A DNA stretch of 32,267 nucleotides. Source: Alphaproteobacteria bacterium (GTDB lineage: Bacteria; Pseudomonadota; Alphaproteobacteria; Bin95). Shown in pieces: positions 779-13,157 of this stretch. The notes under the pieces were generated by a model. The model ran no database searches and was not told the origin of the DNA. It saw nothing but the letters and a program-made list of their open reading frames with translations. The position numbers and the translations under genes were made by a program. Numbering within the stretch: the first letter of the stretch is position 1; each line of letters opens with the position of its first letter. The stretch covers positions 1-32,267 of the forward strand of contig JAJEIH010000100.1 in the NCBI GenBank assembly GCA_022827685.1, in the 5' to 3' direction.

Positions 779-991
779 GTGCGGCCCGTCACCCGTCTTG
801 CGAGATGCGCAGTCTCTGCTTGTTACGAGGTCAAGCACAACCGGTTGACCCCGATTGACGCCAAGACCGGACCACGGCAGGTTCTGCTAGGCGAGACGGC
901 GCGGGAGTTGCTCCGCGACCTCGCCGGTTCGGTATCCGGGAAATGGGTATTCGCCGGGGGCAACGACGTTGATTCGGGAGAGCGGCTTTGA
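779..991 (+). pseudogene. Tyrosine recombinase (phage integrase) remnant
   Basis: About 55 residues in this frame match the beta-hairpin part of the tyrosine recombinase catalytic domain: RLTPIDAKTGPRQVLL carries the conserved lysine in the KTG turn, followed by GETARELLRDL and a GKWVFAGG segment, the usual pattern of phage and island integrases. The N-terminal arm and core-binding domains and the first catalytic Arg are missing upstream, and the HxxR and Tyr motifs are missing downstream, so it cannot be active. The frame stops at TGA 989-991, overlapping the TTG start of the methyltransferase. It probably marks how the neighbouring R-M genes arrived, or an island later eroded by deletion. 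Confidence 0.6.
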
Positions 992-1905
992 GTGAGGGGT
1001 TGGAATCGATCCTGACGCCTGACCTGAGAGCGTTGCGCCCGGACCGGCATCAACGCTCGATTCCTGCCCTCGCCAAGGACCCGGTTTCCCTCGCGCGCAT
1101 ACGCGACCTGCTTGCCTGTGTGGAGACAACCCATGAGGTGATGTTGGGCGATTCCAGAGAGGTAAGGCTGCCATCGTCTTCCGTCCACCTAGTCGTGACT
1201 TCCCCGCCCTACTGGACGCTGAAGGAGTATCCCGAGAGTGACGGGCAGATGGGACGTCTTGGAGACTATGAAGCCTTCCTGAACAGCCTCAAACGTGTCT
1301 GGGAAGGATGCTACGACGCACTAGTGCCCGGCGGGAGGTTGGTTTGCGTGGTCGGCGACATTTGCCTCTCCCGTCGGAAAAACCGCGGGCGGCACATGGT
1401 GATTCCGCTTCACGCATCCGTCCAGATGCAGTGCAGCGATATTGGCTTCGACAACCTCTCGCCGATTATCTGGCACAAGATCAGCAACATGAAGACCGAA
1501 GCGCACAGCAGCGGCTCTTACTTGGGGAAGCCCTTTGAGCCGAACGGCGTGATCAAGAACGACATCGAATTCCTCCTCATGCTGCGCAAACCAGGCGGCT
1601 ACCGCAGCCCGAGCGCCGCTGCACGCCTCCTTAGCGTAATATCCGCGGAGGACCATGATCGCTGGTTCCGGCAAATTTGGAATGATGTTCGCGGCGCTTC
1701 AACCAAGGACCATCCGGCGCCGTTCCCGGTAGAATTGGCGGAACGCCTGATCCGAATGTTCAGCTTTGTCGGCGATACGGTCTTCGATCCTTTCACTGGA
1801 ACGGCGTCGACCCAAGTGGCCGCTCGGCAATGCGGTCGAAACAGTATCGGCGTCGAGGTCGAGCCGACATATCATGCGATGGCGGAGGCGCGACTGGCGC
1901 CATGA
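988..1905 (+). CDS. Site-specific DNA methyltransferase, beta class (probably cytosine-N4)
   Basis: This 305-residue protein would transfer a methyl group from S-adenosylmethionine to an exocyclic amino group of DNA and protect sites from the endonuclease encoded next. The catalytic motif TSPPYWTLKEY lies at residues 71-81 (motif IV), and the SAM-binding motif DPFTGTAST near 267 (motif I). Motif IV before motif I, with the recognition region between, is the beta arrangement of the N6/N4 methyltransferase family. Serine in SPPY favours m4C over m6A, though this is not certain. The TTG start at 988 keeps the ETTHEVMLGD segment that precedes motif IV in relatives; the next in-frame ATG at 1141 would remove it. 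The gene is less GC-rich than its flanks and overlaps the next gene by ATGA, suggesting transfer as a unit. Confidence 0.9.
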   Translation: MSEGLESILTPDLRALRPDRHQRSIPALAKDPVSLARIRDLLACVETTHEVMLGDSREVRLPSSSVHLVVTSPPYWTLKEYPESDGQMGRLGDYEAFLNSLKRVWEGCYDALVPGGRLVCVVGDICLSRRKNRGRHMVIPLHASVQMQCSDIGFDNLSPIIWHKISNMKTEAHSSGSYLGKPFEPNGVIKNDIEFLLMLRKPGGYRSPSAAARLLSVISAEDHDRWFRQIWNDVRGASTKDHPAPFPVELAERLIRMFSFVGDTVFDPFTGTASTQVAARQCGRNSIGVEVEPTYHAMAEARLAP

Positions 1906-2507
1906 TCTCATTGCAGAATGCCGTCGACGACCTGTACAGGATCGCCGTCGTCGAGCAGAAACGCCAGTCGCCCAATCGGCTTGCGATGCTGGCGGAGATG
2001 TGTGTCGAACAACTCGATGAACGCGGTATTGTCGGTGCCGCGAAGGAACTGCCTGTGCCGGGAATAGGGCGCTCCAAGACGTGGGATATAGGGTGGCCTC
2101 CCGATGGGAAGGTTCGACTTGGCATAAGTTTGAAGTCAATTCTGCGCAACGTCGCTGGAACGGTTCCGAACCGGGTGGACGACCTGACGGGTGAAATGGC
2201 GAATGTCCAATTGCTGTCGCCGGAGATTGTGACAGGCTATGTCATGGTCTTCGATACGACCGGGAGTGGTCTTCGCCAGGATGGGACCCGATGGGTGGAT
2301 TTCTTCCGAGATGCTGTAAACCGTCTGTCCGGCCGAGACGCTCCGGCGTGGGCGGCTGGTATGGTGGAGGCATCGGCCATCGTGGAGGTTGATTTCGCCG
2401 AAGGGCCGCGCATTGTCGCCGCACCCGATATGCCAGCCTTTTTTGATCGCCTTGCCTCGTGCGTGAAAGACAGAAATCCGGACCGCTTTCGCGAGAGCAC
2501 GCCATGA
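1902..2507 (+). CDS. Putative type II restriction endonuclease, PD-(D/E)xK-like
   Basis: The gene starts at the ATG inside the methyltransferase stop (ATGA, 1902-1905) and encodes 201 residues. The central part, with D62 in WDIGW, SLK ending at K78 and VPNRVDDLTGE after it, looks like a PD-(D/E)xK nuclease core in which Ser takes the place of the usual acidic residue before xK. I recall this pattern from small proteins encoded beside m4C-type methyltransferases, but I cannot name a characterised enzyme or its target site. The tight overlap and shared lower G+C support its role as the cognate endonuclease. The family assignment is inference from motif and context; a non-nucleolytic partner protein remains possible. 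Confidence 0.65.
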   Translation: MISLQNAVDDLYRIAVVEQKRQSPNRLAMLAEMCVEQLDERGIVGAAKELPVPGIGRSKTWDIGWPPDGKVRLGISLKSILRNVAGTVPNRVDDLTGEMANVQLLSPEIVTGYVMVFDTTGSGLRQDGTRWVDFFRDAVNRLSGRDAPAWAAGMVEASAIVEVDFAEGPRIVAAPDMPAFFDRLASCVKDRNPDRFRESTP

Positions 2508-2782: not shown

Positions 2783-3688
2783 TCAGCAATCCAAAACGGC
2801 CCGTCGGAGGGCGGCGAAGTCCGTGCGGGCTTCGAGGCCGATGCAGATGAGGCCGGCGGGGGCGTCGGCGGGGGCGTCCGTGACCGTCCAGCGGCTGCCG
2901 ACGGTCTGGATGGCGGCCATGCCGCCGCCGGGGCGGCGCATGAAACCCTTGGCGCGCAGCAGGCCGTGTGCGGCGTCGGCGAGGATGCGGGCGAGCGCCT
3001 CCGGTTCGGCGCCCTCGGGCGGGTCGAGCGCGGCGGCTGCGTAGCCCTGCGTGTGGTCGAACGGCCCGCCCGCAGCCGGCGGGGCGGCGCGGCCGGTCCA
3101 GGCGCCGAGCACGATGTCGATGGGGGCCTCGGCGCGGGTCGTGCGCAGCAGCCGGGCGTCCGGCGCCGCCTCGCCGAGCCAGGCTTCCACTTCGTCCGCG
3201 TCGCCCGCGAGGTCGCATTTGTTGAGCAGGATGAGGTCGGCTTGGTCGAGCTGCCGGCGGACGGTGCTACCGAGATAGCGGTCATGGGCCCGGCCGCGCA
3301 CGGTCTCGGCGTCGGCCAGCACCACGGCGCCGTCAAGCGCGAAGCCCTGCAGCAGGCCGACCGTGCCGGCGATGGCGCCGGGGAAGGCGACGCCGCTCGC
3401 CTCCAGCAGCACATGGTCCGGCCTTGGCGCCAGCGCCTCCAGCATGGCGAGCGAGGACACGAGGTCCTCCCCGTAGCTGCAGCACACGCAGCCGCCGACA
3501 AGGCTGACGATGCGCTCGTCCGCCGCCTCCACAAGGCTCGCGTCAATGGGGAGCGCGCCGAATTCGTTCACCATGATTGCGAGCCGCCTGCCATTCGCCT
3601 GCCGGAGCAGGCTGTTGACCAGCGTCGTCTTGCCGGCGCCCAGATAGCCGCCGACCACGGTGACGGGCAGCGGGCCGGCGGCGGTCAT
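2783..3688 (-). CDS. COG0523 (CobW/YjiA-like) GTPase, metal chaperone family
   Basis: This 301-residue G3E-family P-loop GTPase has Walker A GGYLGAGKTT (residues 13-22), the NEFG...ID switch segment, the metal-binding signature GGCVCC (C67, C69, C70) and the guanine-specificity motif NKCD. COG0523 members deliver zinc, cobalt or other metals to client enzymes or take part in metal homeostasis; the client often sits nearby. The start codon overlaps the amidohydrolase stop by ATGA, so the metal-dependent amidohydrolase is an obvious candidate client. That link is inference. The C-terminal CobW_C-like domain is short and the protein lacks the His-rich stretch seen in some relatives. Cytoplasmic. 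Confidence 0.9.
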   Translation of the reverse strand: MTAAGPLPVTVVGGYLGAGKTTLVNSLLRQANGRRLAIMVNEFGALPIDASLVEAADERIVSLVGGCVCCSYGEDLVSSLAMLEALAPRPDHVLLEASGVAFPGAIAGTVGLLQGFALDGAVVLADAETVRGRAHDRYLGSTVRRQLDQADLILLNKCDLAGDADEVEAWLGEAAPDARLLRTTRAEAPIDIVLGAWTGRAAPPAAGGPFDHTQGYAAAALDPPEGAEPEALARILADAAHGLLRAKGFMRRPGGGMAAIQTVGSRWTVTDAPADAPAGLICIGLEARTDFAALRRAVLDC

Positions 3689-5331
3689 GTTCCGAGGTCG
3701 GCGGCCCGGAAGATGCGGCCGCCCTGCACCGTGCCCCAGACGCGGACGTCCTTCAGCCGCTCGCCGCCGACGGTCTCCGGGTCGTCCTCCAGCACGGCGA
3801 AATCGGCGCGCTTGCCGGTCTCGATGGAGCCCACCTCGCCGTCGAGGCCGAGCGTGTAGGCCGCGCCGAGCGTGATCGTGCGGAGCGCGTCGGCGGTACC
3901 GATCCGCTCATGCTCGCCGAGGGTGCGCCCCGATGCGGTCCGCCGGTTGACGGCGCACCAGGCGGTGAAGAGCGGGCCCAGCGGCGTGACCGGCGCGTCG
4001 GAATGGATGGCGAGCGGCACGCCCTCGCGGAGCGCGGTCGCGCAGGCGTTCATGCGCTCGGCGCGCTCCGGCCCCACGGTCACGGCGTAATGCTGGTCGC
4101 CCCAGTAGAAATGGTGGTTGGGGAAGAGGTTGACGCAGAGGCCGAGCGCGCGGATGCGGCGGAACTGCGCCGCGTCGGCAAGCTGGCAGTGCTGGAGGGT
4201 GAAGCGGTGGTCGGGCGCGGGATGCTTGCGGAGCGCGGATTCCATGCAGTCGAGCGCGAGGTCGGTCGCCTCGTCGCCATTGGTGTGGGTATGCACCCGG
4301 AGGCCGGCGGCGAGCGCGCGTTCGTAGATCTCCAGCAGGTGCTCCGGCGGGACGTACCAGAGCCCTTCCGGCGCGCCGTTGTAATAGCCGGGCCAGCGCA
4401 GCCGGGCGGAGAAGCCCTGGATCGAGCCGTCCGCCACCACCTTGATGATGCCGAGGCGGAGCCTGTCCCGGCTGCGGCCCCTGAGCTCGAGCGCCCGGTC
4501 GATCAGCTCTTCGGGCGTGAGGCCGTAGAAGCGCCGCAGCGAGACGATGCGCGCCGGGTAGTCCGGCTCGCCGGTCACGCGCAACATCATCTCCACCGCG
4601 TCTTCCGGCAGCAGGTTGGCGAGGTCGGCGGCCGTGGTGACGCCGGTGCGCACGCAGAGCCTGGCGAAGCGGCGCAGGCCCGGCTCGTCACAGGCCAGCA
4701 GGTCGCGATCGAAGCCGGTGTGGACGCCGAGCGGGGCCATGGCGTCCGGCCCCTTCATCTCGCCGGTCGGCAGGCCGTCCGCGCCGAGCGGGATGCCGGG
4801 ATGGTTGACGCCCGTGCGCAGCAGGCCGGCGAGTTCCAGCGCCCTGGTGTTGACATTCAGGATGTGGCCGGAGGCGTTCAACACGCCGACCGCGCGCTCC
4901 TCCGAGACCCTGTCGAGGTCGTGGCGGTTGACGCGCCGGCCGCCATAGTAGATCGCGTCGAGCGACCAGCCGGCGAGCGGCGCCGCCGGGTCCTCCAGCG
5001 CGCCCGCCGCTTCGGCCAGCCGCTCAACCACGGCGTCGATGGACTTCAGGCCCGCCCAGACCCTGCCTTCGGGGTCCATGCGGTCGAAGAAGCCGCAATA
5101 GACATAGGCCCAGAGCGAGCCTTCCATGACATGGCTGTGGCCTTCCACCAGCCCCGGCATCAGCACCTTGTCCGCGAAGCGCCCGTCGAGGCGGTAGTCG
5201 CCCCAGCCGGCCAGCTCCTCCAGCGTCCCGGCGCCGAGGATGCGGCCCTCCCGCACCGCCACATGGGTGGCGTGCGGCCGGGCCGGGTTCATGGTGATGA
5301 TCCTGGCGGCCGGATAGATGGTGGCGGTCAT
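3685..5331 (-). CDS. YtcJ-type metal-dependent amidohydrolase
   Basis: A 548-residue member of the amidohydrolase superfamily. After an N-terminal beta-sandwich piece, the first metal-binding motif EGHSH gives H65 and H67; further along are IIKVVADGS, HTHTNGD, LQHCQL and HSDAPV, which supply the remaining metal and catalytic residues, and the chain closes with the GSIETGKRADFAVLEDDP segment typical of the family. YtcJ-like proteins hydrolyse amide or related bonds in small molecules; the substrate cannot be predicted. No signal peptide is seen. It overlaps the upstream selenoprotein gene and the downstream COG0523 GTPase gene by ATGA at both ends, so the three are almost certainly co-transcribed and translationally coupled. 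Confidence 0.92.
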   Translation of the reverse strand: MTATIYPAARIITMNPARPHATHVAVREGRILGAGTLEELAGWGDYRLDGRFADKVLMPGLVEGHSHVMEGSLWAYVYCGFFDRMDPEGRVWAGLKSIDAVVERLAEAAGALEDPAAPLAGWSLDAIYYGGRRVNRHDLDRVSEERAVGVLNASGHILNVNTRALELAGLLRTGVNHPGIPLGADGLPTGEMKGPDAMAPLGVHTGFDRDLLACDEPGLRRFARLCVRTGVTTAADLANLLPEDAVEMMLRVTGEPDYPARIVSLRRFYGLTPEELIDRALELRGRSRDRLRLGIIKVVADGSIQGFSARLRWPGYYNGAPEGLWYVPPEHLLEIYERALAAGLRVHTHTNGDEATDLALDCMESALRKHPAPDHRFTLQHCQLADAAQFRRIRALGLCVNLFPNHHFYWGDQHYAVTVGPERAERMNACATALREGVPLAIHSDAPVTPLGPLFTAWCAVNRRTASGRTLGEHERIGTADALRTITLGAAYTLGLDGEVGSIETGKRADFAVLEDDPETVGGERLKDVRVWGTVQGGRIFRAADLGT

Positions 5332-5849
5332 GCCGCGGTCAGGATCGGCAGGGCCTGCCGGTAGGCCGCTTCGGCCAGCACCCTGATCTCGTCCGGCCGG
5401 CGGCTGCCGATCGGGTGCTCGACCATGATGAAGGGATAGTCCGGGAGGCCGAGCGTCCGGGCGATGTTCCGCGCCGTCACCTCGAAGGGTTCGGTGCAGA
5501 TGACCGCCGCGCGCTTGCCGAGCTGCTCGAAGCTGATGCCGTCATGCAAACTGCACGTCGAACAGGAGCCTCAGTCGCCGAGCCCCGTTATCAGGAAATC
5601 GACCTTCTCCGCCGCCTCCTGCAGTGTCTCTTCGGGCGCGGGCGCGCTCGCGTTCCACTTGGACCAGACCGGCACCACCGTGCAGCCGTGCCGTTCCTCG
5701 AAGAGCGCGGCGGTCTCCCGCAGCATGGCGGTGGCGTTGAGCTTGCCGTTCTCCAGCAGGCCGACGGTCCGGCCCTCCAGCCCGGCGAGCGCCGCCGCCC
5801 GGGCGAGGTTCCGCTCCGGCCCCGGAACCGTGGGGTCGCAAAGAAGCAT
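5328..5849 (-). CDS. UGSC-family selenoprotein with in-frame UGA (Sec93)
   Basis: Reading through one TGA (5573-5571, codon 93) gives a continuous 173-residue protein: a Rossmann-like N-terminal half starting MLLCDPTVP, with GRTVGLLENGKLNA and DFLITGLGD, then Sec-G-S-C-S-T-C and a C-terminal half ending LPILTAA. The U-G-S-C tetrapeptide is the signature that names the UGSC (seleno)protein family, known from marine metagenome selenoprotein surveys (from memory). C96 and C99 follow, so a redox or selenothiol role is likely, but the reaction is unknown. A SECIS-like hairpin lies just after the UGA. The start has GGGAG about 12 nt upstream. The true stop is also UGA, overlapping the amidohydrolase ATG. 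The downstream frame is intact for 80 codons, which argues against a nonsense mutation. Gene callers will report two fragments (5571-5849 and 5328-5549). Confidence 0.85.
5539..5561 (-). promoter_or_regulatory. Bacterial SECIS-like hairpin for the UGSC gene
   Basis: On the mRNA strand, TCGACGTGCA and TGCATGACGG pair around a GTT loop: nine pairs, two or three of them G-U, with one A-A mismatch. Nineteen nucleotides separate the UGA from the loop. This closely resembles the E. coli fdhF SECIS, where 18 nt precede a GGUC loop on a stem also ending in GCA/UGC. A G in the first loop positions at 16-37 nt from the UGA is the accepted bacterial SECIS rule. The hairpin lies inside the coding region, as bacterial elements do. 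Confidence 0.75.
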
Positions 5850-5997: not shown

Positions 5998-6267
5998 TCA
6001 GAAGCCGAGATGGGGGCGGTGGCCGCGGTCTCGGTCCTCGCGAATCAGGTCTTCGGCGGGTGTATGTTCGCGCCCTTCCGTTGCGCGCCACAGCGGTTCG
6101 ACCATGGCGAAGAATGCGGCGTGTTTGGCCTCCATATCCTCTTCCTGTACCGCGGCTTCCAGAATATGGCGTGCCTCGGCCTCCAGCGACCGGTTATTGC
6201 TCGACGCGCGGTTCTCAAGGCGCTGGACTACATCGTCATCGAGTTCGCTGACAGTAATCGTCACCAT
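5998..6267 (-). CDS. FitA-like ribbon-helix-helix antitoxin, no toxin beside it
   Basis: An 89-residue protein starting MVTITVSELDDDVVQRLENRA, then SLEAEARHILEAAV: a ribbon-helix-helix DNA-binding domain of the FitA/plasmid-stability type, which normally binds its own operator and neutralises a PIN-domain toxin encoded just downstream. The ATG at 6267 was chosen because GTGGAAGG precedes it; a longer frame upstream lacks homology. Downstream 5850-5997 contains no PIN domain in any frame, so the partner toxin is missing. The C-terminal half (HTPAEDLIREDRDRGHRPHLGF) is longer than in many FitA proteins. It sits between the two UGSC-related genes on the same strand and may be an orphan repressor or a leftover. 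Confidence 0.8.
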   Translation of the reverse strand: MVTITVSELDDDVVQRLENRASSNNRSLEAEARHILEAAVQEEDMEAKHAAFFAMVEPLWRATEGREHTPAEDLIREDRDRGHRPHLGF

Positions 6268-6360
6268 GCCTTCCACTCCGCCGGATTGCTGCCGCGACCG
6301 ATAGCACGGCAAGGCGGGACGGGACACTCTCCCGCGCTCGGGCCGGCTCGCGCTTTCCGC

Positions 6361-7440
6361 CTACTCGCAGTCGATGCACACGCCGATGGGCCTGGACTGC
6401 ATGAGCGAGCCGCGGCCGCGGCTCCAGGAGGGGATGAAGCTGGAGTGGCCGCCGGCGTCGCCGCCGCCCATCACGATCAATATGTCGTCCGGGCCGAGGC
6501 CGCGGTGGAAATGGCCGTCTGCCGCCAGCGGATGGGCGCCCTCCTCGCCGTGCTGCCTGCCGTATTCGACGTCGCGGTGCTTGCCGACGGATTTCATGCC
6601 CTCGACGCTGCGCCGCGCATGGGCGAACAGGTATTCCTGCGCCTGCCTGCGCGTCCAGCCGGCGCCGGCGAGGATGCGCATATGCTCCGGCGCCATCACG
6701 ACGACGGACTGGCCGAGCGTGATGCAGCCGTAATTCGCCATCGCGTCGGCGACGGTGCCGAGAATCTGCTCCGGCGTGTTGCCGCCGTGGTTCTCGATAT
6801 TGCAGAAGCCGCCGCCGGCGAACACCGTGACGCTGCTCACGCCGTCCGGGTAGCCCTGCTCCTCGCAGAGCAGCGGCCAGGGATTGCCGCGGCTGCGCTC
6901 CGCGATGCAGAAGGCGTATTTTCCGGGATGGCCCTGGGTCGATTTGTCGGAAATGCCGGGGACCATCCGGAAGACGTTCATCAGGATGAGGCGCACGGCG
7001 CGCCCGATGGTGGCGTTGGCGCGGTTGCCGGGGCCGAACAGGTTCACGTCCGCGTTCATGGCGATGTCGTCGGTGACCGGGCCGCTCACGACCAGCAGCG
7101 GCGCCGAGCCGCCGGTGGAGGCGGTCGAGCCGTGGAAGTTGAAGCCGGGCTCGTTCATGGCCTCGAAGGCCGCGACCAGCACCGGGAAATATTCGGGCCG
7201 GCAGCCGGCCATGACGGCGTTCACCGCCGCGGCGTGGACCGTGCATTCGAGGCCCGTCGCGGGATGGCGGGCGATGGGCGTCTCCGGCGGGCGGCCCTCA
7301 TAGCCCAGCATCTCTTCCACGCGCCCGGCCGCCGGCGGCACCACGGGCAGGCCGTCCGTCCAGCCCTGCTCGTAGCAATAGTCGATGGCGGCGAGCGGGT
7401 CGTCGGGAACCTCGTGCAGGCGTTCGGCATCGTAGGGCAT
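6361..7440 (-). CDS. UGSC-associated conserved protein with C-terminal Cys pair
   Basis: A 359-residue soluble protein of a family I remember as unnamed conserved proteins found next to, or fused with, UGSC-family proteins. Recognisable blocks are AIDYCYEQGWTDGLPVVPP near the start, AAVNAVMAGCRPEYFPV, FGPGNRANATIGRAVRLIL, GHPGKYAFCIAE, VTVFAGGGFCNIENHG, and a late ILIVMGGGDAGGHSSFIPSW. It ends GVCIDCE with C355 and C358, a CxxC pair at the very C-terminus that could exchange electrons with the selenocysteine of the neighbouring UGSC protein; that is inference. No catalytic assignment is possible. It reads in the same direction as the UGSC operon, separated from it by the antitoxin gene, and diverges from the enolase-superfamily gene across about 100 bp. 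Confidence 0.75.
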   Translation of the reverse strand: MPYDAERLHEVPDDPLAAIDYCYEQGWTDGLPVVPPAAGRVEEMLGYEGRPPETPIARHPATGLECTVHAAAVNAVMAGCRPEYFPVLVAAFEAMNEPGFNFHGSTASTGGSAPLLVVSGPVTDDIAMNADVNLFGPGNRANATIGRAVRLILMNVFRMVPGISDKSTQGHPGKYAFCIAERSRGNPWPLLCEEQGYPDGVSSVTVFAGGGFCNIENHGGNTPEQILGTVADAMANYGCITLGQSVVVMAPEHMRILAGAGWTRRQAQEYLFAHARRSVEGMKSVGKHRDVEYGRQHGEEGAHPLAADGHFHRGLGPDDILIVMGGGDAGGHSSFIPSWSRGRGSLMQSRPIGVCIDCE

Positions 7441-7542
7441 CGGCGCGCGGGCTCCCTTCGGCCTCCGGTTGCCACCCTATAGCGCATGGTGAATTATCGC
7501 CGCAACATGACCGCCGGACGCGCAAGAGGGGGGACCGCAACC

Positions 7543-8634
7543 GTGGCGACAATCGACAAGCTGGAAATCGACCTGTTCCGCCTGCCGCTGCCGGTGGCGA
7601 TGGAGGCCTCGGCCGCGGGCGTGATGACCGCCTTCGACATGGTGACGGCACGCATTACCGACAGCGACGGCGTTTCGGGCGTCGGCTACACCGTCATGCA
7701 CGAAGGGCAGGGCGGCCCGATCGCGGCGATGTGCGACGGCTCCTTCCGGTCCAGCATCGAGGGCCGCGATCCGGACCTGATCGAGGCGATCTGGCGGGAC
7801 ATCTACAAGCGCCACCACTATGCCGGGCGGGGCGGGGCCACCGGCTTCGCGATGGCGGCCGTCGATGTCGCGCTCTGGGACCTGAAGGGCAACAGGCTGG
7901 GCGCGCCGCTCTGGCGGCTGCTGGGCGGGGCCAGTCCGAGCGTGCGCGCCTATGCCGGCAATATCGACCTCAACTTCCCGGTGGACAGGCTGCTGGAAGG
8001 CGGCATGGCGAGCGTCGAGGCGGGCTTCCGGTCGGTCAAGATGCGGCTCGGCCGCCCGACCTTGCGGGAGGACATCGCCCGCGTGGAGGCGATGCGCAAC
8101 CACCTGCCGGACGAGATCGAGCTGATGGCGGATGCCAATGAAGCCTGGCGGGTCGAGCAGGCGATGCGCGCCATGACGCTCTTGCAGCCCTTCGACCTCG
8201 TCTGGCTGGAGGAGCCGATTGCGCCCGACAACACGGCCGGCTACGCGCATCTGCGTTCGCTCGGAAAGGTGCCGCTGGCGGCGGGCGAGAACCACCACAC
8301 GCTCGCCGAGTTCGCCGCGCTGATCGGCGCCGGCGGGGTCGATTTCCCGGAGCCCGACCTCACCACATGCGGCGGCGTCACGCCCTTCATGAAGGTGGCG
8401 CACCTCGCCGAGGCGCACGGCCTGCCGGTGATGAGCCACGGCGCGCACGACCTGCATATCCACCTGCTGGCCGCCGCCCCGAACGCGGCCTACCTGGAAT
8501 GGCACGCCTTCGGCTTCGACAAGTTCATGGCGGACCCGCTGACGGTCGAGGACGGCTACGCCCGCGCCCCCGACCGCCCCGGCCACGGCATCGCCTTCGA
8601 CTGGGAGGCGCTGGCGGCGCACCGGCCGGGCTAG
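7543..8634 (+). CDS. Enolase superfamily enzyme (mandelate racemase/muconate lactonizing type)
   Basis: A 363-residue protein with an N-terminal capping domain and a TIM-barrel. The metal ligands are visible as D in MADANEAW, E in WLEEPI and E in AAGENHH; SVKMRLG holds the catalytic lysine on strand 2, and MSHGAHD holds the histidine expected in the mandelate racemase subgroup. It should abstract a proton next to a carboxylate and dehydrate, racemise or cycloisomerise an acid sugar or related compound; the substrate is unknown. The GTG at 7543 is preferred because AGAGGGGGGAC sits at the right distance; an in-frame ATG at 7486 would add 19 residues without homology. Transcribed away from the UGSC-associated gene. 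Confidence 0.92.
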   Translation: MATIDKLEIDLFRLPLPVAMEASAAGVMTAFDMVTARITDSDGVSGVGYTVMHEGQGGPIAAMCDGSFRSSIEGRDPDLIEAIWRDIYKRHHYAGRGGATGFAMAAVDVALWDLKGNRLGAPLWRLLGGASPSVRAYAGNIDLNFPVDRLLEGGMASVEAGFRSVKMRLGRPTLREDIARVEAMRNHLPDEIELMADANEAWRVEQAMRAMTLLQPFDLVWLEEPIAPDNTAGYAHLRSLGKVPLAAGENHHTLAEFAALIGAGGVDFPEPDLTTCGGVTPFMKVAHLAEAHGLPVMSHGAHDLHIHLLAAAPNAAYLEWHAFGFDKFMADPLTVEDGYARAPDRPGHGIAFDWEALAAHRPG

Positions 8635-9528: not shown

Positions 9529-10443
9529 TCAAAGCCCCCACCGCAGCGCCACCAGGTCCAGCGGCCGCGCCAGCTCCAGCAGGCCGGCCAGCACCTCCGG
9601 CTCCAGCGGGGTGAGCGGGGCGCGGACGTGGGCGGAGCGGATGACGCCGCCGGCTTTCATCGCCGCCTTGCAGGCGCGGAGGCCGCACTGGCGGTTCTCG
9701 TAGTTGATGAGCGGCAGCACGCGGGCGTATGCGGCGGCGGCTTCCTCGCGGCGGCCGTCGCGGTGGGCGTCCACCACGGGTTTCAGCAGGTCCGGCAGCA
9801 GCGCGCTCGGCATGGTGCCGGTGGCGCCGGCGTCGAGGTCGGCCATGAGCGTGATCGCCTCCTCGCCGTCGAACGGCCCCTCTATGGCCTCCCCGCCCGC
9901 CCGGATGAGCGCGCGCAGCTTCGCGGCGGCCTGCGGCGTCTCGATCTTGAAGTAGGCGACCCCGGCGATCTCCCGCGCGAGCCGGGCGAGGAAGGGTACG
10001 CTCAGCTCCACGCCCGAAAGCGGCGCATCCTGCACCATGATCGGCAGGCCCGCCTCCGCCGCCCGCGCGAACTGCTCGTAAGTCTGCGCCTCGGTGCCCC
10101 GGAGCCCGGTCCCGTGATAGGGCGGCATCAGCATGACCATCGCGGCACCCAGCTCGGCCGCCCGGCGGCAGCGCTCGACCACGATCCGGGTCGAGTAATG
10201 CGAGGCCGCGACGATGACCGGCAAGCGGCCCGCGGCATGCTCCAGGCAGGTCCGGGCCAGGGTCTCGCGCTCCCCGTCGGAAATCAGGAACTGCTCGGAA
10301 TAGTTGGCGAGGATGCAGAGTCCGTCCGAGCCTTGGTCCACCATGCAGTCGAGCACCCGCCTCTGCCCTTCGAGGTCGAGGTCGCCGGTTTCGGTGAAGA
10401 CGGTCGGGACGACCGGCCACACGCCGCGCCAGGGTCTTGCCAT
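9529..10443 (-). CDS. Dihydrodipicolinate synthase/N-acetylneuraminate lyase family enzyme
   Basis: A 304-residue class I aldolase-fold protein. GVWPVVPTVFTETGDLDLEG is the typical opening, and the Schiff-base lysine is K166 in GVAYFKIETP. The conserved tyrosine motif of true DHDPS (YNxP) is replaced by VQDAP around 137-141, so this is unlikely to be the lysine-biosynthetic DapA; it belongs with the catabolic lyases or dehydratases of the family that act on keto acids or acid sugars. The ATG at 10443 is preferred because GGGAGG precedes it. It may work with the enolase-superfamily dehydratase 1 kb away in sugar-acid breakdown, which is inference from context only. Confidence 0.9.
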   Translation of the reverse strand: MARPWRGVWPVVPTVFTETGDLDLEGQRRVLDCMVDQGSDGLCILANYSEQFLISDGERETLARTCLEHAAGRLPVIVAASHYSTRIVVERCRRAAELGAAMVMLMPPYHGTGLRGTEAQTYEQFARAAEAGLPIMVQDAPLSGVELSVPFLARLAREIAGVAYFKIETPQAAAKLRALIRAGGEAIEGPFDGEEAITLMADLDAGATGTMPSALLPDLLKPVVDAHRDGRREEAAAAYARVLPLINYENRQCGLRACKAAMKAGGVIRSAHVRAPLTPLEPEVLAGLLELARPLDLVALRWGL

Positions 10444-10557
10444 GCTGTTCCCTCCCGATCCCCGCATGCCGCTCCGCGCCAGCTTACGCGATTTCCGCCG
10501 GACCCGGTTCGGGCCTTATCCTTGCGGGAGCCGCTTTGACCGTCCGGGGGCGAGGAC

Positions 10558-11836: not shown

Positions 11837-12652
11837 ATGCCTGACCGACCGCTCGTGCTCGCCTCTCAGGAAGGCCGCGCCGCCGTGTTGACCCTGAACC
11901 GCCCGGAGAAGAAGAACGCGATGAACGACGCGCTGCTGGAGGCGTTCGTGGCGGCGGTCCGCAGCGCCAATGCGGATGACGGGGTGCGCGCCATCGTCGT
12001 CCGGGGCGCGGGCGACTGTTTCACATCGGGCCGCGACGCCTCCGAGTTCGAGCAGGCCGCCGTTCTCCAGGACATGTCCGTGGACGCGGCGGTGGACATC
12101 TTCCTGGAGGCGCTGTCGCTGCTGATCGAATCGCCGAAGCCGACCGTCGCCGCCGTGCACGGCATGGCGCTCGGCGGCGGGCAGGCCATGTCGCTCGCCT
12201 GCGATTTCGTGGTGGCCGAGCGCGGCGCGCGCTTCGGCAATGTGGAGATGGCCTACGGCTTCCCCGCCGCCATGAACATCGCGCTCCTGACCCGCCAGAT
12301 CGGCCGGCGCCGGGGGCTGGAAATCGCCATGACCGGCGACCTCTACACGGCCGAGCAGTATCGCGAGTTCGGCCTGGTCAACCGGCTGGCGGAGCCGGGC
12401 GGGCTGGCCGGAGCGGTGGCGGACTTCGTCGGCACGCTGACCGACCGCGCGCCCTGGGCGGTCCGGCGCACCAAGGCCGCCTACCGGCTGGCTGAGGACA
12501 TGGCGCTACACGGCGCGCTCAATTTCGGCAACCAGTTGAACCAGCTCCTCCGCCTGAACGGCCAGATCGCGCCGATCCACAGCCGCAGCGAGGGGGTGAA
12601 ACGGGCCCTGAAGACGGATATCGCCGAAGGGGAAGCGGCAAAGGGCGGTTAG
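11837..12652 (+). CDS. Enoyl-CoA hydratase/isomerase (crotonase) family
   Basis: A 271-residue crotonase. LNRPEKKNAMNDALL carries the CoA-binding region, FTSGRDASEF and HGMALGGGQAMSLACDFVVAE form the oxyanion hole, and FGNVEMAYGFPAAMN is the segment where catalytic glutamates usually lie; one is visible as E in NVEMAYG. It could hydrate an enoyl-CoA or isomerise its double bond in fatty-acid or aromatic-acid catabolism; the exact substrate cannot be told. GAGGAGCC precedes the ATG. The last quarter of this gene is duplicated 500 bp downstream as a truncated copy. Confidence 0.93.
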   Translation: MPDRPLVLASQEGRAAVLTLNRPEKKNAMNDALLEAFVAAVRSANADDGVRAIVVRGAGDCFTSGRDASEFEQAAVLQDMSVDAAVDIFLEALSLLIESPKPTVAAVHGMALGGGQAMSLACDFVVAERGARFGNVEMAYGFPAAMNIALLTRQIGRRRGLEIAMTGDLYTAEQYREFGLVNRLAEPGGLAGAVADFVGTLTDRAPWAVRRTKAAYRLAEDMALHGALNFGNQLNQLLRLNGQIAPIHSRSEGVKRALKTDIAEGEAAKGG

Positions 12653-12839: not shown

Positions 12840-12921
12840 GAAACCTGTTCCTGTCCGCGTGCCCACGCCCGCCCACAGGTAACCGCCGCTACAGCCTTGG
12901 TCAAGGCTTGGTCAAGCAGGT

Positions 12922-13157
12922 TTGCCGGGGCGGTGGCGGACTTCGTCGGCACGCTGACCGACCGCGCGCCCCGGGCCGTCCGGCGCACCGAGGCCGCCTA
13001 CCGGCTGGCCGAGGACATGGCGCTCAACGGCGCGCCCAATTTCGGCAACCAGCGGAACCGGCTCCTCCACCTGAACGGCCGGATCGCGCCGGTCCACAGC
13101 CGCAGCGAGGGGGTGAAACAGGCCCTCAAGACGGATATCGCGGAGGGGGACGGTTAG
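12922..13157 (+). pseudogene. Truncated duplicate of the enoyl-CoA hydratase 3' end
   Basis: From 12922 to the TAG at 13157 this matches the last quarter of the hydratase gene (12405-12652), with an offset of 517 bp. Over 75 aligned residues (AGAVADFVGTLTDRAP onward) there are 10 substitutions, and the copy then lacks four residues near the end (DIAEGDG against DIAEGEAAKGG). The identity continues a few bases past the stop (GGTTAGGCCGT). The frame is open but the N-terminal three quarters, including the catalytic region, is absent, so it cannot be an active hydratase. It is probably what remains of a tandem gene duplication followed by deletion, with the Phd-like gene in between. Confidence 0.8.

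What the first reader, a model, noticed from the sequence alone, without database searches (positions are those of the whole stretch)
2783..5849. Coupled operon: UGSC selenoprotein, amidohydrolase, COG0523 metal GTPase
The three genes overlap by ATGA at both junctions, so they are translated in fixed proportion. A redox-type selenoprotein, a metal-dependent amidohydrolase and a metal-delivery GTPase form a combination I do not know as a described pathway. A simple model is that the GTPase loads the amidohydrolase and the two enzymes act on one substrate. The first fragment-level annotation would hide this link.
Basis: partly seen in the sequence, partly recalled or inferred. Interest (0 to 1): 0.7.

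Follow-up and report, generated by a model that had tools for sequence, protein, structure and literature searches.

The report
Two gene modules meeting in one operon
The three overlapping genes are real, but the trio is confined to one genus: it is the meeting point of two separately conserved pairs, a selenium protein with an unnamed partner (probably a thioredoxin-fed reductase) and a metal-dependent hydrolase with its likely metal-loading GTPase.

Summary
The anatomy is confirmed. A UGSC selenoprotein (TGA=Sec at codon 93), an Amidohydro_3 amidohydrolase and a COG0523 GTPase overlap by ATGA at both junctions. The triplet itself is not conserved. It occurs only in the window's genus, and even there one or both overlaps are lost in 3 of the 5 loci where they can be read.

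Two conserved modules meet here:
(A) UGSC plus the gene upstream of it (6361-7440, "c1"; no Pfam, NCBIfam or PDB match). Of 129 distinct UGSC genes, 125 have c1 adjacent or fused. Thioredoxin-reductase-like genes stand beside the pair in about a dozen loci.
(B) Amidohydrolase plus COG0523, adjacent and co-oriented in 30 of 30 loci. Only 3 of those 30 have UGSC.

Profile comparison links UGSC to GRDB/PrdB-type selenoproteins with Sec on Sec (P 2e-5 to 8e-5; best of 70 decoys 0.02). The model has a flavodoxin-like topology.

Best reading: c1-UGSC is a substrate-specific, thioredoxin-recharged, GrdB-like reductase, and the GTPase metallates the amidohydrolase. "GTPase loads amidohydrolase" is strengthened; "two enzymes, one substrate" is unsupported outside this genus.

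The parts
6361..7440 (-). c1: 359-aa unnamed protein, near-universal partner of UGSC proteins; ends ...CIDCE
   Evidence: c1 homologue adjacent to or fused with UGSC in 125 of 129 distinct UGSC loci; no Pfam, NCBIfam or PDB match
5998..6276 (-). FitA-like ribbon-helix-helix gene lying between c1 and UGSC
   Evidence: PF22513 5e-14; present at this place in 4 loci (window, L037, L038, L041), while the c1-UGSC gap is 33 bp in L039 and L040
5328..5849 (-). UGSC selenoprotein, 173 aa
   Evidence: PF24696 3e-48, NF041046 131 bits over cut-off 125; read through with TGA=U
5571..5573 (-). in-frame TGA read as selenocysteine (codon 93)
   Evidence: SelA, SelB, tRNA-Sec in genome
5543..5557 (-). putative bacterial SECIS hairpin, apical loop GUU
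   Evidence: fold of 91 distinct sequences after the TGA, mean z -2.5; weak for the window's own orthologue group
3685..5331 (-). YtcJ-like amidohydrolase (Amidohydro_3), 548 aa; GHSH, HTH, QHC and HSD metal-site motifs kept
2783..3688 (-). COG0523/CobW-family GTPase, 301 aa, P-loop GGYLGAGKTT, GGCVCC and NKCD motifs
   Evidence: PF02492 5e-42, PF07683 7e-6; motifs; paired with the amidohydrolase in 30/30 loci
7486..8634 (+). divergent mandelate racemase/muconate lactonizing (enolase superfamily) enzyme, 45 bp from the c1 start
   Evidence: PF13378 5e-63; kept beside c1 in 6 of 6 orthologous loci (cluster 12)

Best explanation
The triplet is the junction of two independent conserved modules. 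Module A is c1 + UGSC: UGSC is a small Rossmann/flavodoxin-like selenoprotein, distantly homologous to the catalytic segment of the GrdB/PrdB reductases, with the Sec of U-x-x-C at the start of the helix after strand 3. c1 is its dedicated partner and presumably forms the substrate site. The selenolate attacks a polarised C-X bond (X = N, S, O or halogen) of a substrate held by c1, and the oxidised U-x-x-C pair is recharged by thioredoxin and NADPH. Different paralogues (up to 8 per genome) serve different catabolic clusters. Module B is amidohydrolase + COG0523: the GTPase loads the divalent metal into the amidohydrolase. In the window's genus module B came to lie directly behind a c1-UGSC pair, and in some species the genes tightened to ATGA overlaps. 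Shown: module structure, Sec identity, partner conservation, trx linkage in about a dozen loci, distant GrdB similarity. Inferred: C-X reduction, c1 as substrate subunit, metal loading, and any metabolic link between the modules.
For: c1 adjacent or fused in 125 of 129 distinct UGSC genes, natural fusions in 11 loci. A fusion model has pLDDT 91.3 and pTM 0.91, so the two domains pack confidently. Amidohydrolase-COG0523 adjacent in 30/30 loci, UGSC in only 3 of them. hhalign UGSC against GRDB-like selenoproteins: P 1.8e-5 to 7.5e-5, prob 62-78%, Sec column on Sec column; best of 70 decoy families P 0.02. UGSC model pLDDT 90.8 with a beta-alpha repeat, flavodoxin-like topology. Electron supply: trxB-trxA-c1-UGSC on an Arthrobacter plasmid, c1-UGSC-trxB in Roseovarius, trxB near c1-UGSC in Variovorax; TrxR-like reductases with a CxxC within 100 bp on the same strand in 8 loci; CPTC thioredoxin-like N-terminal domain on long c1. 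Precedent: GrdB complexes are multi-paralogue and substrate-specific, and a GrdB/GrdE-like pair without pyruvoyl is proposed to cleave C-F (PMC10838667).
Against: No UGSC member hits Pfam GRDB directly, so the homology rests on profile-profile comparison and motif alignment. The thioredoxin-like call for long c1 is weak (PDB E 0.005, Pfam below cut-offs), and the window's own c1 lacks that domain and has no trx gene beside it. No fold match was found for c1. Four UGSC genes lack c1 (three orthologues in genus g3, and L162). No substrate is known. A link between the modules cannot be excluded: genomes holding both are enriched (19 observed, about 5 expected), and two other loci place parts of both within a few kb (L184, L242).
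Confidence: 0.5

Rival explanations
1. One reading: UGSC, amidohydrolase and GTPase are one pathway acting on one substrate, translated in fixed ratio.
For: Genus-wide synteny in L037-L040; enrichment of genomes holding both modules (19 of 376, odds ratio 10; 9 shared families, p 4e-4 to 8e-4); near-neighbourhood in L184 and L242.
Against: No triplet outside the genus; 27 of 30 amidohydrolase-GTPase pairs lack UGSC within 1.5 kb; UGSC orthologues L052, L154 and L168 lack the pair; overlaps not conserved. Co-occurrence is confounded by phylogeny and genome size.
Confidence: 0.2
2. c1-UGSC is an antioxidant or general thiol-repair system (peroxidase/disulphide reductase), as is usual for UxxC selenoproteins with a Trx-like fold.
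For: U-x-x-C motif; trxB/trxA neighbours; the GOS paper assumes a Trx-like fold (PMC2398784).
Against: The predicted topology is a flavodoxin-like beta-alpha repeat. Several paralogues per genome sit in varied catabolic clusters with transporters, CoA-transferases and LLM monooxygenases. An obligate large partner is unusual for a general antioxidant.
Confidence: 0.2
3. c1-UGSC is a Cys/Sec isomerase, racemase or decarboxylase (nucleophile catalysis without net reduction), with Trx keeping the Sec reduced.
For: A Rossmann-like domain with a nucleophile at a helix start is also how some racemases and isomerases work (general knowledge, not tested here).
Against: Conserved UxxC pair and dedicated trx genes point to redox turnover; the profile similarity is to the GrdB-type reductases.
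Confidence: 0.15

Closest known systems
UGSC family (seleno)proteins, PF24696 / NF041046
   Same: Same family: HMM hits over cut-off, UGSC motif, Sec with Cys homologues
   Different: The published record (GOS, PMC2398784) notes only a fusion with 'Unknown_1' and assumes a Trx-like fold. Here the partner is near-universal, a thioredoxin system is attached in about a dozen loci, and the predicted fold is flavodoxin-like
GrdB / PrdB (glycine, sarcosine, betaine, D-proline reductase, PF07355)
   Same: Sec of UxxC after a beta strand, partner subunit, multi-paralogue substrate-specific operons, thioredoxin recharging
   Different: UGSC is 173 aa, gives no direct GRDB hit, and its partner c1 gives no PF09338 (GrdE/PrdA) hit
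farB/farE of Cloacibacillus porcorum (proposed C-F cleavage, PMC10838667)
   Same: GrdB-like Sec enzyme with a non-pyruvoyl partner
   Different: Anaerobe, true GRDB homologues; UGSC is only distantly related
COG0523 metallochaperones paired with a client (Nha3 with Fe-type nitrile hydratase, CobW with B12 synthesis)
   Same: Conserved GTPase-client gene pair, CxCC and GTPase motifs
   Different: Client here would be a YtcJ-like amidohydrolase; the COG0523 subgroup paper PMC2770081 is not among the papers that hold both terms; the GTPase is below the CobW equivalog cut-off (127 of 332 bits)

Membership tests
UGSC family (PF24696/NF041046) | HMM score over curated cut-off | tested here: met
   164.5 of 25 bits Pfam, 131 of 125 bits NCBIfam
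UGSC family (PF24696/NF041046) | Sec (or Cys) in the UGSC motif, with Sec machinery in the genome | tested here: met
GrdB/PrdB (PF07355) | direct match to the GRDB model | tested here: not met
   none of 68 UGSC members hit PF07355 at E up to 10
GrdB/PrdB (PF07355) | homology of the Sec-bearing catalytic segment | tested here: met
   hhalign P 1.8e-5 to 7.5e-5 with Sec columns aligned, decoys no better than 0.02; prob only 62-78%
GrdB/PrdB (PF07355) | GrdE/PrdA pyruvoyl proprotein partner (PF09338) | tested here: not met
   c1 gives no PF09338 hit in 56 members. The class search for PF09338 found nothing, but no control rang either, so absence from the class is not shown
GrdB/PrdB (PF07355) | reductive C-N cleavage fed by thioredoxin | not testable with these tools
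   trxB/trxA neighbours only
Thioredoxin-fold selenoproteins (GOS suggestion for UGSC) | thioredoxin fold | tested here: inconclusive
   pLDDT 90.8 model; best structural matches flavodoxin/Rossmann-like
COG0523 GTPases | cobW domain, P-loop, CxCC, NKxD | tested here: met
COG0523 GTPases | metal delivery to a client | not testable with these tools
   30/30 gene pairing only
CobW of cobalamin biosynthesis (TIGR02475) | equivalog cut-off 332 bits | tested here: not met
   127 bits
Amidohydro_3 / YtcJ-like amidohydrolases | family match and metal-ligand motifs | tested here: met
   PF07969 3e-68; GHSH, HTH, QHC, HSD

The most novel reading that the evidence does not exclude
c1-UGSC is a new class of thioredoxin-driven, pyruvoyl-independent seleno-reductase: a counterpart of glycine/proline reductase outside the classical anaerobes, diversified into many substrate-specific paralogues that cut C-N, C-S or C-halogen bonds. 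c1 would be a new protein family forming the substrate site.
Probability: 0.3. Interest if true: 0.8.

Novelty: new variant of a known kind. Interest (0 to 1): 0.55.

Why it matters
UGSC is one of the commonest selenoprotein families in aquatic metagenomes and has had no assigned function since its description. Naming its near-universal partner, its thioredoxin supply and a distant link to GrdB turns it into a testable enzyme. Separately, the amidohydrolase-COG0523 pair gives a clear candidate client for a COG0523 metallochaperone subgroup, where few clients are known.

Tried and rejected
1) Triplet as a conserved unit: rejected by the neighbourhood survey. 2) Conserved translational coupling: rejected, overlaps lost in orthologues. 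3) UGSC as a Trx fold: not supported by the model (no Trx-fold protein among the 50 structural matches shown), not excluded. 4) c1 identity by Pfam, NCBIfam and PDB sequence search: nothing. Foldseek and VIA on the fusion matched only the UGSC half, so the c1 fold is barely tested. 5) GrdE/PrdA (PF09338) as c1 relative: no match; the class search did not ring in any control, so it is not informative. 6) A first hhalign run used global mode by mistake and gave no match; rerun in local mode. 8) Several gene-context lists rely on a home-made codon-usage gene finder, which fails on some loci of other composition; the survey counts use HMM hits instead. 9) The genome-contig scan used a Cys pattern, so it returned Cys versions only.

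Full report
Observation. On the minus strand UGSC (5849..5328), an amidohydrolase (5331..3685) and a COG0523 GTPase (3688..2783) are joined by two ATGA overlaps. UGSC matches PF24696 and NF041046 over their cut-offs, the second gene is Amidohydro_3, the third cobW.

Selenocysteine. The in-frame TGA at codon 93 is kept in 100 of 129 distinct UGSC genes. In 27 loci from other organisms the same position is Cys. SelA, SelB and tRNA-Sec are in the genome. The 45 nt after the TGA fold better than shuffles over 91 distinct sequences (mean z -2.5), with a hairpin carrying an apical GU; for the window's own group the excess is small, and a longer fold shows none.

The real partner of UGSC. The own genome carries several UGSC genes, all with TGA (6 matches listed). 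I collected their neighbourhoods in the order, in the class (38 of 385 genomes have UGSC) and in named genomes, and scanned them with HMMs for UGSC, the upstream gene (c1), the amidohydrolase and the GTPase. c1 is within 1 kb on the same strand in 125 of 129 distinct UGSC loci, usually upstream, and is fused to UGSC in 11 loci. The GOS paper reported one such fusion with 'Unknown_1' (PMC2398784), which I presume is c1 but could not check. c1 has no Pfam, NCBIfam or PDB match and is annotated 'hypothetical protein' on named plasmids.

The other module. The amidohydrolase occurs in 49 of 376 class genomes at E below 1e-60. All 30 loci held have a COG0523 gene directly downstream on the same strand. 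UGSC is beside it only in the window's genus. So the triplet is a junction of two modules. UGSC relatives 69-78% identical outside the genus (L052, L154, L168) have c1 but not the pair. Within the genus the overlaps change: -4/-4 in the window and L037, -4/238 in L038, 37/388 in L039, 37/2 in L040.

Could the modules still be linked? Genomes holding both are enriched (19 of 376, Fisher p 3e-9; at family level 9 shared, p 4e-4 to 8e-4), but relatedness and genome size are not controlled. Two further loci place parts of both within a few kb: L184, where amidohydrolase and GTPase (51% and 40% identical) diverge from a UGSC-c1 fusion, and L242, where an orphan c1 lies about 0.8 kb beyond the pair. 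I leave a weak link open.

How UGSC probably works. The AlphaFold model (pLDDT 90.8) has five beta-alpha repeats, with Sec93 immediately before the helix after strand 3; structural matches are flavodoxin/Rossmann-like. The order's genomes also carry GRDB-like selenoproteins (VPV-U-PNC, AN-U-PVCHQ). Profile comparison with UGSC gives P 1.8e-5 to 7.5e-5 (prob 62-78%) with Sec on Sec, against a best decoy of 0.02 in 70. Direct Pfam GRDB hits are absent. So UGSC works like a GrdB catalytic segment more surely than it belongs to that family. The natural fusion models as one confident unit (pTM 0.91). Electrons probably come from thioredoxin: trxB-trxA-c1-UGSC in Arthrobacter, c1-UGSC-trxB in Roseovarius, trxB nearby in Variovorax, TrxR-like genes within 100 bp on the same strand in 8 loci, and a CPTC Trx-like N-terminal domain on many c1 proteins (weak statistics). 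The window's own operon has neither, so there the supply would be the cell's general thioredoxin. GrdB-type enzymes have substrate-specific paralogues, and a non-pyruvoyl version is proposed to cut C-F (PMC10838667). Other UGSC neighbours are catabolic: TctC and TRAP transporters, CoA-transferases, LLM monooxygenases, SDRs, isocitrate lyase/PEP mutase relatives.

The window's own context. A divergent enolase-superfamily enzyme (7486-8634) is kept beside c1 in 6 of 6 orthologous loci, and a DHDPS-family aldolase lies further on (9529-10467). A sugar-acid-like catabolic cluster is plausible but untested.

Confidence. Module structure and Sec identity: above 0.9. GTPase serves the amidohydrolase: about 0.6. 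c1-UGSC as Trx-recharged GrdB-like reductase: about 0.4. One substrate for both modules: about 0.2.

Noticed in passing
window 6361-7440: Unnamed protein family (c1), near-universal partner of UGSC proteins, no match in Pfam, NCBIfam or PDB; invariant A78 G79 P82 G120 R147 G170 E181 G326 in 56 members.
   Followed up: yes
window 5998-6276: FitA-like RHH gene without an obvious toxin sits between c1 and UGSC in 4 loci (window, L037, L038, L041) and is missing in L039 and L040: probably a recent insertion inside a conserved pair.
   Followed up: partly
own genome, L079 (G000:C157) and G000:C74: GRDB-like selenoproteins (VPV-U-PNCTRAV type in L079) that ordinary gene calling would end at the TGA; all 14 genomes of the order have matches.
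   Followed up: partly
window 12908-13157: Partial duplicate of the C-terminal end of the enoyl-CoA hydratase gene at 11837-12652.
   Followed up: no
L066, L069, L193, L195, L197, L199, L201: Variant with two tandem c1 genes beside UGSC and a TrxR-like reductase within 100 bp on the same strand: possibly a heteromeric partner with its own reductase.
   Followed up: partly
L162 and L242 (same genome, G078): A UGSC gene without c1 and a c1 gene without UGSC in one genome: perhaps a split pair.
   Followed up: partly
L042, L045, L049: Solitary UGSC selenoproteins without c1 in genus g3; a response regulator gene lies upstream in L042 and L045.
   Followed up: partly
L302 (Natrinema) and L303 (Arthrobacter): Genes annotated phosphosulfolactate synthase close to c1-UGSC in an archaeon and an actinomycete: a possible substrate hint (C-S chemistry).
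   Followed up: no
window 988-2507: N6_N4 DNA methylase followed by an overlapping 225-aa ORF of unknown family, perhaps a restriction-modification pair.
   Followed up: no
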